Source: Leptolyngbya sp. BC1307
GTDB taxonomy: Bacteria > Cyanobacteriota > Cyanobacteriia > Phormidesmidales > Phormidesmidaceae
Reading direction: 5' to 3'
DNA: 38,419 nucleotides
Assembly (NCBI RefSeq): GCF_002286735.1
Contig: NZ_NRTA01000038.1
Location: forward strand, 1-38,419
The notes beneath the pieces are model-generated. The model ran no database searches. It was given only the letters and a program-made list of their open reading frames with translations, and was not told the DNA's origin. The position numbers were made by a program, and so were the translations under genes. This document shows positions 1,203 through 38,419 of this stretch, one piece after another. Numbering within the stretch: position 1 is the first letter of the stretch; each line of letters starts with the position of its first letter.

Positions 1203-4200
1203 TTATTCGGACTGGTGGCTGTTGAACGTCTCAAATATTTGAGCGACTTCTTCAACGGTTGCATTCGAACATTTAGGAACGTCGGTTAAAAGATTATTTT
1301 CTTGGGTTATTTTGTGAAGCTTGGCGAGAACTCTCATCGTCGTTTCTATGTTGTGCTTATCCTTGAACTCAATAAAAATTTCCAAGGCTAGTTGTAAGTG
1401 TTCCTGAGCCTGTGAGTATCTCTCTTGTATCTCTGCTATTAGTCCTAAGTTATGGTAGACGCTCGCTTGGCTATAACGGTTCTTGTGTCCATAGATATCG
1501 AGCGCCTGTTGGTAATGCGATTGTGCTTGTTCGTACTCTGTCATTTCTTTGGCGACAGAGCCTAAGTTGTTATACGTACTCGCTTGACTACCATGGTCGT
1601 TGAATTCAATTTTGATATCTAATGCCTGCTGGAAGTATTCTCTTGCCTGTGCAAACCTTCCTAGTGTTAATTCGAGACTACCCAAGTTGTGGTAGACACC
1701 TGCTTGTTTGTATCGATTCCCAAACTCGTTGAATATTTTAATGGCTTTCTTATAATGGAATTTTGCTTGCTCGTGTTCCTCTAATGTTTGTGCGACTGAT
1801 CCCAACTGGCTGTGTGTAGCTGCTTGTTGATGACGAGCAGAGGCTGCTTTAAACATTTTAATGGCCCTTTTATAGTAATTTCTTGCTCCCTTATAATTAT
1901 TCAGTGCTTGCGCAGTCATTCCTAACTGATGATATATAGCTGCTTGGCTACGATAGTTTCTGGTCTTAATATAGATATCCAAGGAATCTTGATAGTGTAG
2001 TTGTGCTTCCTCAAAATTCCGCAAAACTTGGTCAACTCTTCCTAGTAAATGATAGGCGTCAGGAAGCAGTATTTCCTTCATTTCGTCATTAAGTGCAGTA
2101 GTATGGGTCACTAAACTTACTATCTTTTCACCTGTTTTTTGAGCTTTTACATACTCTTTAGAGTTTAGGTGCCCCCACCCTATCGTACTGACGCAGGCGA
2201 GATTCTGCATCTCTAAATCTGGAGTTCTGTCCTCAAGCGAATAAGTCTCCAAGCGAGACTGAATAAGTTTAGCGAGTTCGAACTTCTCTGAACTACTGTT
2301 GCCAGCTTCTAGATGTGCATTCAGGCAACTACTTATAATTGTGATAACCTCCTCTTTGTTTTCGAGAACAATTGTTAGAGATTTGTATAAGTTCTGGTAT
2401 TCTATGCGACAACATGCTAATCCTAGCCGCCGTTCATCTGAACTGCTAGAATTTACCAACTTAAAGTACATCGCTGCCAAATCTTGATAGTGATCTTTGA
2501 AGCTACTGTAGATAGCCTTCTGAGCGACAGAATCTGTGCGCAGCTTTACTTTCAAAAAGTAAGGAAGAATAGGCTGAATGTTTAAAAAGCCTAGTCCTAC
2601 CACTACAGTCTCGTAAGGTGATAACAATCCTAGCTTAATAGCTTCATCTAGAGCGCTGTCAAATTGTTCAAAACTATAGCCTTGAAAAACTTCATACTTT
2701 TGTAGTTTCTCAAAATAGTGCTTCGCAAACTCTCTTGTCAAAAAACTACTGAACGGTGCCAAACACGCCAACAACTTCTGCGCATCCATCGACAAATTAC
2801 TGTGCGAATATTCCACACACTTCAAAATATTATTTGTCTTCTCCTCACCCCCCACATCAAACCCTTCCACATTTGCCGCATCCAACCCATTCAGTACTTC
2901 CTGCGGACTCTGCCTCGTCAAGTTCCCCAACACAACCTCCATCGCCAACGGATACCCCGCTAACAACCTCATCAGCCGCTTAAATCCCTCATCCTTCCGT
3001 AACGCCGCAATCCGCTTCGCATCTTTCACCTGCGCCGCCAAAATTTTCTCCGCCAGCACCGTCCGAGACTCCGGATCTAACCCACCTAACACATACCGAT
3101 TCTCTCTTCCCTCAGCCGCAAACACATCCGCCAGCCACTCCTCACCGCCACGAGAACCCAGCACCACCTTCGTTCGCCCACCTTTCAACAGCTTCAAAAA
3201 GTCTCTTACCTGTTCTCTTTCTTCTTCCGGCAGCGTATTCTGAATCGCCAACGCCTGACCCGTCACCGACTCCAAATTATCCAACACCAACCCATAAGGC
3301 TCCGCCCGCAGCCGATCCGCTACATCCACCATCTGCGCCGCCAGCGGCATCGCCTCAAACTCAGCAAACGCATACTCATTCGCATACAGCCGCTTCCCCA
3401 TTACCCGTAGCATCTGCTGAAGCGTATATGCCCGCTCGTCATAGCCAAAATAAAACACCTCCCGCGCAAACCCTGTCCGCTGCCACCACGCCCGCAAATA
3501 GTTCAGCAGCGTCGTCTTCCCCGTCCCGCCCATCCCCCGCAGCAGCAGCATATTATGCCGTAGCAGCGCCTTCTCAATCTTCAAAATCTCCAAATCCCGA
3601 CCCACAAATCCATAAGTCGGCTCCTCAAACCGATAGCGCTGACCCTTCTCCATCAGCGCCTCAGCCTTCGCCCGCCCACTCAACGGCTCCAGCCGCAAAT
3701 CCACCTCACCATTCACATACACCACCGGCAGTAGCCAATCCTCTAGCTCCACCATCTGATTGAAATAAACCCGCCGATTCTTCTCTTCATGCAGCTCTTT
3801 CCGCCCTAGCCGAATCGCCTCCGGCACGCCCTTCTCCTCAAACAGCGCCTCATACAACCTCTGCATCATCAGCGCCGCCGCGCTCACCGTTACGCTGTAG
3901 CCCATCGCCACCACCGTCTGCACCCCAGCCGCCATCAACCGACTCCCCAGGCTGGTTTCTCGCATCTCGCCATCTGGCAAAACGCTATTCACCTGTTTCC
4001 CCGACTGACAAGCATTCAAAATGCAAACCGGAATCCCTTTATTCACCAGCAAATCCGCCAGCTCCTGTGCCTCCACCGGATCCGCCTGCCCCTTCTGCTT
4101 CCCCTCCAAAAACAAAAAAGACTTCTCCCCCTCATAGGGCGCAATATCTGGTCGCCCCCGCCGCGCCTGAAACACATAGCGATCGCTCTGCGCCCCCGCC

Positions 4201-4895
4201 ATATATTGTGCGTAGCTCATCAGCCCGCCATGCGCATCAAAATGAACAATGTGATAAAACCCTGCCTTCCGCTCCAAATGCTCGCTCAGCGCCACAAACG
4301 TCCCCGGCCTCAGCAGCTCCACATTCACCTGCTGCCGCCCCTGCTCAATCGCCTCAATCAAGGGCCGAGAAATCGTCCGATAACCCACGTCGCTCTCCTC
4401 GTCTGGCCTCGCCGTCACCACCAGCAAATTAATCTTACTAGACGGCTTCAGCCGAATCCGCAACCCACTCTCCTGAAACCGCTTCCGCGTAAAAACGCAC
4501 TCCACCGCCAGCGGCCTCGGCAAATCCGGATCCTTCAGCGCCTCCCAATGCAACGCCTGAAACGCAGGAGAACCCCCCTCAATCTCAATCCTCAGCTCGC
4601 TCAGCCCATCCTCACAGGCCCGCTGATAATCGCTATATGCCTTGCGATCGCCAAACACATCCTCAAACAGATGCTCGCCGTAGTCCTTCACGCTCGCCGC
4701 CGCCCGCTGCGCTCTTACCTGCTCATCAAACGGAAACCGAATCCACTCTTCAAAATAAAACTCTAAATCCCGCTCCTGCTTACTATCAAACGGATCGCGT
4801 ACCGTAATGTCGTGCCGCGTTTGGTCATCAATGCTCACCGTCGCCGCAAATCCATCCTCACTCTGCTGGCTCTCACGGATAACAATCGTATGCAT
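1203..4895 (-). CDS. CHAT protease - STAND NTPase - TPR protein
   Basis: This encodes 1230 residues from the ATG at 4895; in-frame codons continue to 5117, but homologues as I recall them begin like MHTIVIRESQ. The N-terminal half carries a CHAT (caspase HetF-associated with TPRs) peptidase domain: VHFDAHGG (H222) and LNACQSG (C296) supply the His-Cys dyad. Next is a STAND-type NTPase: YGFVGRDLEI at 428, Walker A GMGGTGKTT at 454-462, Walker B LVLDNLES at 536-543 and a GYPLA motif at 647-651. From about 942 to 1183 there are six 40-residue tetratricopeptide repeats (e.g. YHNLGSL...ALDI). This is the layout of bacterial NLR-like proteins: ligand sensed by TPRs, NTP-driven oligomerisation, protease output; roles in cell death or phage defence are inferred. 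The part encoding residues beyond about 690 is much more AT-rich than the rest. Confidence 0.9.
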   Translation of the reverse strand: MHTIVIRESQQSEDGFAATVSIDDQTRHDITVRDPFDSKQERDLEFYFEEWIRFPFDEQVRAQRAAASVKDYGEHLFEDVFGDRKAYSDYQRACEDGLSELRIEIEGGSPAFQALHWEALKDPDLPRPLAVECVFTRKRFQESGLRIRLKPSSKINLLVVTARPDEESDVGYRTISRPLIEAIEQGRQQVNVELLRPGTFVALSEHLERKAGFYHIVHFDAHGGLMSYAQYMAGAQSDRYVFQARRGRPDIAPYEGEKSFLFLEGKQKGQADPVEAQELADLLVNKGIPVCILNACQSGKQVNSVLPDGEMRETSLGSRLMAAGVQTVVAMGYSVTVSAAALMMQRLYEALFEEKGVPEAIRLGRKELHEEKNRRVYFNQMVELEDWLLPVVYVNGEVDLRLEPLSGRAKAEALMEKGQRYRFEEPTYGFVGRDLEILKIEKALLRHNMLLLRGMGGTGKTTLLNYLRAWWQRTGFAREVFYFGYDERAYTLQQMLRVMGKRLYANEYAFAEFEAMPLAAQMVDVADRLRAEPYGLVLDNLESVTGQALAIQNTLPEEEREQVRDFLKLLKGGRTKVVLGSRGGEEWLADVFAAEGRENRYVLGGLDPESRTVLAEKILAAQVKDAKRIAALRKDEGFKRLMRLLAGYPLAMEVVLGNLTRQSPQEVLNGLDAANVEGFDVGGEEKTNNILKCVEYSHSNLSMDAQKLLACLAPFSSFLTREFAKHYFEKLQKYEVFQGYSFEQFDSALDEAIKLGLLSPYETVVVGLGFLNIQPILPYFLKVKLRTDSVAQKAIYSSFKDHYQDLAAMYFKLVNSSSSDERRLGLACCRIEYQNLYKSLTIVLENKEEVITIISSCLNAHLEAGNSSSEKFELAKLIQSRLETYSLEDRTPDLEMQNLACVSTIGWGHLNSKEYVKAQKTGEKIVSLVTHTTALNDEMKEILLPDAYHLLGRVDQVLRNFEEAQLHYQDSLDIYIKTRNYRSQAAIYHQLGMTAQALNNYKGARNYYKRAIKMFKAASARHQQAATHSQLGSVAQTLEEHEQAKFHYKKAIKIFNEFGNRYKQAGVYHNLGSLELTLGRFAQAREYFQQALDIKIEFNDHGSQASTYNNLGSVAKEMTEYEQAQSHYQQALDIYGHKNRYSQASVYHNLGLIAEIQERYSQAQEHLQLALEIFIEFKDKHNIETTMRVLAKLHKITQENNLLTDVPKCSNATVEEVAQIFETFNSHQSE

Positions 4896-5236
4896 AGCAA
4901 GGCAAGTAGGAATAACGACTAAAGGAAATAAATGTTCTTTGATATTAACCGCTTCAAACTGCCCCTCACCCTTTCCGGTAGCTCCTCGAAAATAGGCCAG
5001 TTGCGATCGCTCCTTCAAAAGTAAGCTTGCACCCGCCCGCACGAACCCTACAGGGCGTGAAACAGGGCGTGAAATCCGTACCGCATTCAGCAAAAACGGC
5101 TGCCACGACATCGGCAATGTAATTTACAATGTTTAACAGTTGGTACCATTGCCAGATGCATTAACCAGTTCATTTTGTAAGCACCGCCCAGAAAGCGGTG
5201 TGCCGACCGTTTCCAGAACTCAAATAAAGAATCACC
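4896..5236. other. divergent intergenic region (CHAT gene / fusA)
   Basis: This 341-nt stretch separates two divergently transcribed genes and should hold both promoters. It contains a HIP1 site (GCGATCGC, near 5006) and a 12-bp direct repeat CAGGGCGTGAAA starting near 5051. A TACAAT hexamer lies at 5125-5130 on the plus strand without a convincing -35. The minus frame is open through most of it, but the codons do not resemble the family N-terminus. No RNA gene was recognised. Confidence 0.5.
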
Positions 5237-36857: not shown

Positions 36858-36930
36858 GCTGGTGTAGCTCAGTTGGTAGAGCAGCTGATTTGTAATCAGC
36901 CGGTCGCAAGTTCGAGTCTTGTCACCAGCT
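36858..36930 (+). tRNA. tRNA-Thr (anticodon UGU)
   Basis: The 73-nt gene folds as a cloverleaf: acceptor GCTGGTG pairs with CACCAGC (7 bp), D arm GCTC-AGTTGGTA-GAGC, anticodon stem GCTGA/TCAGC with loop TTTGTAA giving anticodon UGU (reads ACA), and T arm around GTTCGAGTC. The discriminator is T and CCA is not encoded, so RNase Z and CCA addition are needed. It is preceded by an extended -10 and followed by a terminator. The sequence just downstream carries direct repeats and an integrase fragment, so the 3' half of this tRNA probably served as an integration site. Confidence 0.95.
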
Positions 36931-36956
36931 TCCTTAGTAAATCAACGATTTCACAG

Positions 36957-36995
36957 TCCCTGCAAGGTTTACAACCCTTGCGGGGATTGCTTTTT
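36957..36995 (+). terminator. terminator after tRNA-Thr
   Basis: TCCCTGCAAGG (36957-36967) pairs with CCTTGCGGGGA (36976-36986) with one T-G wobble, followed by TTGC and TTTTT (36991-36995). Confidence 0.75.
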
Positions 36996-37057
36996 GAAGG
37001 GTGTCTAAAAAAGCCGTTGGACATTATTGGCTGCTTTTAGTCAGGTTTGGAAGGCAA

Positions 37058-37092
37058 TTTGGGGTAATTTTTGGGGTAAGAATTTGGAGTAA
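37058..37092. repeat. TTTGGGGTAA direct repeats (possible integrase arm sites)
   Basis: TTTGGGGTAA occurs at 37058-37067 and 37070-37079, with TTTGGAGTAA at 37083-37092 and a degenerate copy (GCTGGGGTGG) at 37095. Spacing is 12-13 bp, just over one helical turn. The position, about 130 nt past the tRNA 3' end and 76 nt before an integrase fragment, is where arm-type integrase binding sites would be expected. Confidence 0.5.
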
Positions 37093-37167
37093 GGCTGGGG
37101 TGGAAAAAATAAAAAGGATGAATATAATTTAGTAGATCATTTGTTCTGCTAATGAGGTAGCATCCTG

Positions 37168-37326
37168 ATGCAACCCACAAAATCCACGAAAAAAGCAAAA
37201 TATGGCTCGGTTCAAGTCAGAAACTCACACAATCGTCTACAGATAGTCTTTTCGGCCTGGTTCAAAAAAGGCCGATTTTGGGTAACACAGGTAGCTCCAA
37301 TTAGACCATCGTTGCCGATGGTCTAG
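37168..37326 (+). pseudogene. truncated tyrosine-recombinase (integrase) N-terminus
   Basis: The frame encodes 52 residues before a stop: MQPTKSTKKAKYGSVQVRN, then SHNRLQIVFSAWFKKGRFWV. The layout basic tail - (K)GSV-x-(V/I) - short gap - RLQI-x-F - GKR/GRF matches the arm-DNA-binding N-terminus of cyanobacterial phage-type integrases, as I remember them. The core-binding and catalytic domains are missing. Resemblance fades after about residue 41, and the stop lies in a palindrome at the putative edge of an inserted IS, so the gene is likely interrupted by the transposase element to the right. The remainder may lie past 38419. The ATG is chosen because an in-frame stop (37153) bounds it upstream. 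Confidence 0.5.
37302..37325. repeat. perfect 10-bp inverted repeat beside the transposase gene
   Basis: TAGACCATCG (37302-37311) and CGATGGTCTA (37316-37325) are exact complements around TTGC. It lies 20 nt past the transposase stop codon. No T run follows on either strand, so it may be an IS-end structure rather than a terminator. Confidence 0.6.
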
Positions 37327-37345: not shown

Positions 37346-38317
37346 CTACGCTCTTTGGAAACGCTTAAAACCCAGTAGCTCTAGCCAATGGGGATGAGCC
37401 TCACCAGTCAGCAGTTGCTTGGGACTTTTGCCCACCCGCTCTGGCTTCAGCGACCGCATGAAACAGCGGTGATTCAAAAAGTATTGCAAAAGGCTCAGGT
37501 AGGAATCGCCTAAACTCCGTCGCAGAAAGAAATAATTGCGCAGCCGTGAGTTGAGGTTCTCGACCATAGAGCTGGCCCTCGGCGTCTCTTCGAGCGCTTT
37601 GCCCACCGCCTCCATTACCCCATGAAATTTGCTAGATAGCTGGCTATGCAACTGGTTCCACCGTACCCAGTAGGCATTCGAGGTGTCGTGTTTTCGGTGC
37701 AGCAGGCAGACCTCCCGTACGGCCTGCGATGGTAGCTCAAAGTCCTCAGCGATCTTAGCCAGCTTCTGGTCAACGACACCCGCAAAGGCCAATAGCTGGT
37801 CGCGCTGATTATGCAGTGCCTTTCTGAGCTTGCGGATGGCAGGATAGCGCTCATCTTCTCGCTGTTGCAGTTCCAAAACAATGAAGTCAAAGAGTTCCTG
37901 ACGCACTGCCAGCGGTGGCCCAGCCAAGGCCAGCACATCATGAGAGAACCAGCCCAACAGCGTTTTGACATCCTGGGCTAGACAGATAAGTGCCTGCTCT
38001 CGTTGTTCTGCTAGCCACTGTTGACTGAGGAGTTTCTGCGCCACGATGTCTTTGAGGCGGGTGTTGGCCATCTGCTGCGCCTGCTTCAGCAGCCGTGCTG
38101 GCCCGCCTTGGATGCGACGAGTCAGACCATTGACCACTTGCTCAAACTGATGCTGGATATGGAATACATCGCCGTGGCAGGGTGTCTCTGGCATCACCGC
38201 TTTCTGTCCAGCCCGCAGACCACTACCGCCATCAGCGATGGTGTAGTCTGGGTCGAAGCCTTGCTCTATGACATCCAGCAGATGACAGCCCCAGGTATCT
38301 TCATCTCGGTGGTCCAC
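37346..38317 (-). pseudogene. 5'-truncated DDE transposase
   Basis: The frame encodes 323 residues from a GTG at 38317, with an in-frame stop five codons further up (38333-38335). Recognisable: IADGGSGLRAGQKAVMP followed by PCHGDVFHIQHQ (aspartates of a DDE core), a long helical insert (about 75-240), then SSMVENLNSRLRNYFFLRR carrying the catalytic Glu and ending PKQLLTGEAHPHWLELLGFKRF. I do not know the IS family; it does not look like IS3, IS4 or IS66. The N-terminal DNA-binding domain and first Asp region are missing: no minus-strand frame continues through 38318-38419, so the copy is truncated or frameshifted. The upstream piece may lie beyond the window. Confidence 0.7.
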
Positions 38318-38419
38318 CGATTGGGTATCAACTCAAGGCGGGAAAAGCAGAGCTTCTAGTCAAGTAACAAATAGCACATTGGCCAGGCGGATAGAAAAAG
38401 CTCTGCGGCGAAGCCCAGA

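What the first reader, a model, noticed from the sequence alone, without database searches (positions are those of the whole stretch)
36858..37326. tRNA-Thr island edge: arm-type repeats and an integrase stub
Within 470 bases: a tRNA-Thr, its terminator, three or four TTTGGGGTAA repeats at 12-13 bp spacing, and an integrase N-terminus broken near an inserted transposase element. This ordering suggests a mobile island integrated in the tRNA, with unknown cargo beyond the right end of the window.
Basis: partly seen in the sequence, partly recalled or inferred. Interest (0 to 1): 0.6.

Follow-up and report, generated by a model that had tools for sequence, protein, structure and literature searches.

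The report
Crippled phage-defence island beside a tRNA
The end of this cyanobacterial contig is one edge of a roughly 16-kilobase mobile island that inserted into a threonine tRNA gene carrying what looks like a sulphur-based anti-phage system, and a jumping element now sits where its integrase and half of that system used to be, so it is probably stuck and disarmed.

Summary
The other end lies on contig C39: an exact 44-bp copy of the tRNA 3' half (window 36888-36931 = C39:24232-24275) with its own TTGGGGTA doublet. That doublet occurs only twice in the 4.9-Mb assembly, at these two ends. The contigs join through a second IS with a 9-bp target duplication; the join gives one 501-aa transposase frame. 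The island is 15.65 kb plus the unassembled IS interior. No integrase remainder was found: the first IS abuts a truncated SspC/BrxC-like gene, so an IS-linked deletion probably removed the integrase body and phosphorothioation genes (SspD, SspB/DUF4007, SspC start). A NERD-kinase-kinase-PglZ-like fusion, BrxL and an SspA/DndA-like desulfurase remain; complete clusters occur in other cyanobacteria. The same arm doublets bracket tRNA duplications at Arg and Gly tRNAs in four other genomes. No empty site was found, and the far flank was not seen next to this tRNA in nine relatives. The island type is ordinary; the defence fusion and shared arm code are the new parts.

The parts
36858..36930 (+). 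tRNA-Thr(UGU), whole at the left junction (attL)
36888..36931 (+). 44-bp att core, anticodon loop to tRNA 3' end; exact second copy at C39:24232-24275 (minus strand)
36954..36989 (+). terminator hairpin on the island side of the core (inferred to come from the element)
37056..37092 (+). three arm-type repeats (TTTGGGGTAA type), inferred integrase arm sites of attL
37168..37253 (+). integrase N-terminal stub, 28 codons, by similarity the start of an Arm-DNA-bind_2 domain
   Evidence: related integrases carry PF12167
37254..38322 (-). left part of IS-A; C-terminal part of its transposase at 37346-38317. Other part at about C39:37616-38195
38314..38322 (.). 9-bp target duplication of IS-B; same 9 bp on the other side of IS-B on C39
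38323..38419 (.). left end of IS-B; found in five other contigs at 99-100%; the contig stops here

Best explanation
The site is attL of an integrative island that a tyrosine recombinase placed in tRNA-Thr(UGU). The recombinase exchanged strands within a 44-bp identity running from the anticodon loop to the tRNA 3' end. The host tRNA 5' half was completed by the element's own 3' half, which brought its own terminator, and the displaced 3' half is attR on C39. Direct TTGGGGTA repeats on both element sides are the sites bound by the integrase's Arm-DNA-bind_2 domain. Later, IS-A came to lie between codon 28 of the integrase and about codon 271-274 of an SspC/BrxC-like gene, with the DNA between them deleted; IS-B then inserted into IS-A. 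The island lost its catalytic integrase and so cannot excise on its own, and it lost the phosphorothioation genes sspD, sspB and the start of sspC. It retains a NERD-kinase-kinase-PglZ-like fusion, BrxL and an SspA/DndA-like cysteine desulfurase, probably a non-functional remnant of a phosphorothioate-dependent defence system. Shown: the two att copies, the arm doublets, the IS-B and IS-A junctions, and which genes are missing from the assembly. Inferred: recombinase action and arm binding, the deletion and the order of events, and loss of mobility and defence.
For: Exact 44-bp core on C39, no whole tRNA called there. Arm doublet only at these two places in the assembly. Same 9-bp duplication on both sides of IS-B, and one 501-aa transposase frame across the join. 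IS-A flanks show no target duplication (read), and SspC homology starts at residue 271-274 of about 1830 right at the IS-A end. No integrase remainder, second SspC, SspB or convincing SspD in the assembly, whereas the same SspB, SspC and SspD types of query find them in three relatives. In G001 the integrase side and the RHH/HNH side are joined across one tRNA core with arms on both sides, as expected of attP. Four other genomes show the same arms around 46-54 bp tRNA duplications. Island G+C 0.46 against 0.52-0.56 in the flanks.
Against: No empty tRNA-Thr site with the C39 flank was found. The flanking dppC was on another contig (7) or at least 0.2 Mb away (2) in the 9 relatives examined; several of those assemblies are fragmented, so adjacency across a contig gap is not excluded there. 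In 6 of the 9, dppC follows a cysteine desulfurase gene instead. So the far junction was rearranged or lies in a region without conserved order. The IS-B interior is not assembled. The 52-aa stub ORF gives no Pfam match. The G001 composite site has a truncated integrase, without an in-frame start that I could see, and may be a tandem relic rather than a free circle.
Confidence: 0.87

Rival explanations
1. Two different elements: C38 is the edge of one tRNA-Thr island and C39 the end of another; IS-A recombination joined them, so the present 16-kb unit was never one mobile element.
For: IS-A has other full or partial copies in the genome and no target duplication at its two flanks. dppC was not seen beside tRNA-Thr in 9 of 9 relatives.
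Against: The arm doublet occurs only at these two sites. In G001 the integrase side and the RHH/HNH side meet across one tRNA core, which marks them as the two ends of one element type.
Confidence: 0.1
2. A decayed prophage or plasmid remnant at the tRNA, not a defence island.
For: tRNA-borne tyrosine integrases are common in prophages (recalled).
Against: The large genes on C39:24276-37611 match defence families or the defence cluster of relatives. No phage structural gene was recognised among the ORFs scanned, but the PHROGs library was not run.
Confidence: 0.03
3. The retained fusion, BrxL and desulfurase still work as a stand-alone effector module without phosphorothioation.
For: The three reading frames are uninterrupted and align over nearly their whole length with relatives or family models.
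Against: SspD, SspB and the SspC N-terminus were not found in the assembly. In the same-genus genome G004 the cluster pieces held are broken into several frames, which suggests decay.
Confidence: 0.15

Closest known systems
tRNA-targeted genomic islands with tyrosine recombinases
   Same: Whole tRNA at one end, 3'-end duplication at the other, integrase beside attL, arm-type repeats
   Different: Integrase reduced to 28 codons with an IS in its place; arm sequence shared with islands at Gly and Arg tRNAs in other cyanobacteria
Type-4 BREX (phosphorothioate-based; PMC12839542: abstract, section 34 and term passages read)
   Same: BrxL, PglZ-like domain, BrxC/SspC-like ATPase remnant and cysteine desulfurase here; PAPS reductase and DUF4007 in relatives
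   Different: PglZ-like part is fused to a NERD-kinase-kinase N-terminus, not the iSTAND domain the paper describes; modification genes missing here
Ssp phosphorothioate system (SspABCD)
   Same: Relatives' proteins match PADLOC SspD (369 bits), SspB (55), SspC (54) from G333 and SspA (444) from G027
   Different: A PglZ-like fusion and BrxL follow the SspC-like gene; SspE was not looked for
[quoted passage not shown]
   Same: N-terminal NERD plus tandem kinase; NF047741 at 646 bits, cut-off 460
   Different: The C-terminal half is PglZ-like, and the neighbours are Ssp-like and BrxL genes; PglW's own model is far below its cut-off (192 against 990 bits)

Membership tests
tRNA-integrated genomic island | Whole tRNA at one junction | tested here: met
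tRNA-integrated genomic island | Direct repeat of the tRNA 3' end at the other junction | tested here: met
   44 bp exact
tRNA-integrated genomic island | Tyrosine integrase next to the tRNA | tested here: inconclusive
   28-codon stub only. Of 7 related integrases scanned, 6 pass the cut-offs of PF12167 and PF00589; the truncated G001 one passes only PF12167
tRNA-integrated genomic island | Arm sites on both element sides | tested here: met
   sequence pattern only, two places in the assembly; binding not tested
tRNA-integrated genomic island | Empty site in a relative | tested here: not met
   dppC flank not seen beside tRNA-Thr in 9 of 9 relatives; contig gaps limit this
Type-4 BREX | PglZ | tested here: inconclusive
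   PF08665 22.3 bits, cut-off 25; BREX-4 PglZ model 21 bits, cut-off 140; profile matches response-regulator structures, E 1.9e-6 (that these are PorX-type proteins with a PglZ domain is recalled)
Type-4 BREX | BrxL | tested here: met
   TIGR02688 442 bits, cut-off 329
Type-4 BREX | BrxC/SspC ATPase | tested here: inconclusive
   homology to relatives from residue 271-274 only; no family model matches the remnant
[quoted passage not shown]
   best match in the assembly E 0.0021 over 64 aa
Type-4 BREX | DUF4007 / SspB | tested here: not met
   no match in the assembly at E 0.01 or in window and L046; the same query matches three relatives
Type-4 BREX | DNA phosphorothioation | not testable with these tools
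   needs chemistry

The most novel reading that the evidence does not exclude
The cargo belongs to a cyanobacterial subtype of phosphorothioate-based defence in which Ssp-type modification genes are coupled to one effector protein that merges the NERD-kinase-kinase front of PglW/MAD6 with a PglZ-like nuclease, followed by BrxL. It travels, at least here, on islands whose integrases share one arm-site code while switching tRNA target.
Probability: 0.45. Interest if true: 0.6.

Novelty: new variant of a known kind. Interest (0 to 1): 0.45.

Why it matters
It turns a guess from a contig edge into a bounded island with both attachment sites, a cargo and a likely cause of its immobility. The arm doublet is a searchable marker that found both ends of such islands in five of six genomes where both kinds of site were seen. 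The NERD-kinase-PglZ-like fusion suggests that kinase and PglZ functions, on separate proteins in Type-2 BREX, can be one molecule in a phosphorothioate system, which can be tested in complete relatives.

Tried and rejected
Integrase paralogs: the matches to the stub region at C20, C89, C70, C90 and C100 looked like more integrases. Their contexts and alignment showed IS-A-type end sequences, so the stub was cut back to 37168-37253.

Single-repeat scan: only weakly above chance; replaced by the paired pattern with a backwards control.

Free circular element in G001: contig C93 has an attP-like site, but no end overlap and a truncated integrase. I do not claim a circle.

Empty site: no relative shows it.

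Pairing of the two arm clusters in G014 failed (11-bp shared block). G008's third cluster shares only 13 bp. The arm site at G010 tRNA-Phe had no integrase match.

Structure of the PglZ-like part: mean pLDDT 64, too low for a fold search, so none was run. Pfam scans of IS-A transposase pieces gave no family; NCBIfam gave only sub-threshold ISH6/ISKra4 matches.

Papers: PMC12839542 was read as abstract, section 34 and term passages, including all 6 places with 'kinase'; PMC10853773 as term passages; the others were seen only in search listings. PMC12914056 is not held. That the NERD-kinase-PglZ fusion is not in print rests only on searches and those passages.

Full report
WHAT IS THERE. The window is the end of contig C38 of an unnamed 4.9-Mb genome in 222 contigs. 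The nearest named records found with its cargo are cyanobacteria such as Oscillatoria sp. CS-180 and a Leptolyngbya MAG. A whole tRNA-Thr(UGU) lies at 36858-36930. It is followed by a strong terminator hairpin, three direct repeats of TTTGGGGTAA type 12 and 13 bp apart, and a reading frame whose first 28 codons are an integrase N-terminus. From 37254 the sequence is an IS end: similar sequence recurs in five other contigs in contexts where I saw no integrase.

THE OTHER END. A genome search with 36858-37326 found one other strong match to the tRNA 3' half, C39:24162-24278, 81% over 117 bp; a further weak tRNA match at C14 is a whole tRNA-Thr(CGT). The inner 44 bp on C39 are exact (window 36888-36931 = C39:24232-24275). 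ARAGORN calls no tRNA there. On the island side of that copy stands a TTGGGGTA doublet. The doublet pattern occurs exactly twice in the assembly, at these two ends; the backwards control gives none. The hairpin on the C39 side is weak (z -0.6), as one might expect of an orphan terminator, though the two copies may simply differ by origin.

JOINING THE CONTIGS. The last 97 bases of the window are the end of a second IS (IS-B) that also occurs in five other contigs. IS-B interrupts the transposase of the first IS (IS-A). The nine bases before IS-B in the window are repeated exactly on the C39 side. With IS-B left out, the two halves give one uninterrupted 501-aa transposase frame that aligns, in pieces, along other copies in the genome. 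So C38 runs through IS-B into C39 read backwards. The island is 1,532 + 14,118 = 15,650 bases plus the unassembled IS-B interior.

WHAT WAS LOST. IS-A has no target duplication that I could see at its two flanks. On one side it cuts the integrase after codon 28. On the other it abuts the SspC/BrxC-like gene, whose homology to relatives begins at residue 271-274 of about 1830. The assembly holds no integrase remainder: besides the stub, only two diverged integrases at 37% and 28%. It holds no second SspC, no SspB match at E 0.01, and as best SspD match 64 aa at E 0.0021. In relatives the order is SspD, SspB/DUF4007, a small ORF, SspC-like (about 1830 aa), the fusion, BrxL and a cysteine desulfurase. 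All seven are found in G202, G027 and G287, each with the fusion as one frame; in G202 SspD and the desulfurase stand apart from the rest, with other genes between. G333 has all seven but its fusion frame is broken (family matches). The simplest reading is an IS-linked deletion that removed the integrase body and the modification genes.

WHAT REMAINS. A 1593-aa protein has an N-terminal NERD domain, two kinase stretches (NF047741 MAD6, 646 bits, cut-off 460) and a PglZ-like C-terminus (PF08665 22.3 bits, below its cut-off of 25; BREX-4 PglZ 21 bits, cut-off 140). A five-sequence profile of that part matches response-regulator structures at E 1.9e-6; that these are PorX-type proteins with a PglZ domain is recalled. 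Next come BrxL (442 bits), an SspA/DndA-like desulfurase (PADLOC 442 bits; below the NCBIfam DndA cut-off), an HNH protein, and an ORF with only a weak RHH match (16 bits, cut-off 27). Among 388 genomes of the class, 10, own included, match the fusion protein at E 1e-200; 4 do so over the whole length without a stop (own, G202, G027, G287) and 6 in part. Among 39 loci found with the PglZ-like part, 35 are cyanobacterial by title. Of those 35, 9 have a stop-to-stop NERD-kinase-PglZ frame of 1495-1647 aa, 3 have it broken or partial, 16 have a 727-771 aa frame without NERD or kinase match at E 1e-6, and 7 are shorter frames, some at contig edges.

THE ARM CODE. In 38 genomes the doublet has 25 matches in 12 genomes against 4 for the backwards control, or 23 clusters after merging three overlapping ones. 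By (18 loci scanned), partly by eye: 8 follow a whole tRNA (Thr, Phe, Arg-CCT, Arg-CCG, Gly-CCC twice, Gly-TCC twice), 7 precede a tRNA 3' fragment, 1 follows such a fragment, 2 are inverted and lie within integrase reading frames, and 5 show no tRNA trace. At one of the 7 fragments, G022:C176, ARAGORN does call a tRNA-Arg; I count it as a fragment because it shares an exact 49-bp 3' block with the whole tRNA on C120. Of the 8 whole-tRNA sites, 7 have integrase similarity beside them, own stub included; G010 tRNA-Phe has none. In 5 of 6 genomes with both kinds of cluster, the two tRNA ends share an exact block of 44, 49, 46, 49 and 54 bp (maximum in 100 shuffles each: 10-11); the sixth, G014, shares 11. 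The distance from core to left arms is 116-129 bp in the five; from right arms to core it is 42-47 bp in four and 73 bp here. The right-hand G008 site is itself followed by another integrase-like stretch (32%), so elements may be stacked there. The 5 integrases tested beside such whole-tRNA arms pass the cut-offs for PF12167 and PF00589.

RELATIVES AND DOUBTS. Of the 30 best loci around the upstream response regulator (49 genomes matched), 24 show tRNA-Thr(UGU). Of these 24, 4, own included, have integrase homology in the 0.3-1.5 kb held downstream, and a fifth has a sub-threshold PF12167 match. G004 and G005 keep arm-like repeats after the tRNA, and G004 has a broken copy of part of the cargo. 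G001 has an attP-like composite with arms on both sides. Against the model: the far flank, dppC, was not seen beside tRNA-Thr in 9 of 9 relatives, some of them fragmented, and follows a cysteine desulfurase gene in 6. I therefore have both att copies but no empty site.

VERDICT. Observation confirmed, interpretation supported, cargo identified. As a tRNA island it is ordinary; the crippled hybrid defence cargo and the shared arm code make it a new variant. That crossover lies at the anticodon loop in many tRNA-targeting integrases is recalled knowledge, not a result of these calls.

Noticed in passing
G000:C43:21693-22607 (L143): A second PF12167/PF00589 integrase, 392-aa open frame, about 200 bp downstream of tRNA-Val(CAC): probably another tRNA island edge in the same genome.
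   Followed up: partly
G001:C93:10640-10960 (L114): attP-like composite: arms, tRNA-Thr 3' core, arms, truncated integrase; circle or tandem relic.
   Followed up: partly
G022:C120:5895-5914 and G048:C18:217174-217193: Inverted arm doublets inside integrase reading frames about 300 bp from the left arms, in two distant genomes; possible extra arm or autoregulatory sites.
   Followed up: no
G000:C19:28925-29743 (L108) and G005:C66 (L103): The RHH-like plus HNH gene pair of the island end occurs elsewhere at about 71-72% identity, without the arm doublet: perhaps a separately moving pair.
   Followed up: no
window 1203-5117: 1304-aa CHAT-AAA-TPR protein on the minus strand, possibly a defence or signalling protein.
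   Followed up: partly
G000:C20:56621-56693 and similar: Short IS-A-type end repeats without a transposase seen beside them (MITE-like) in C20.
   Followed up: no
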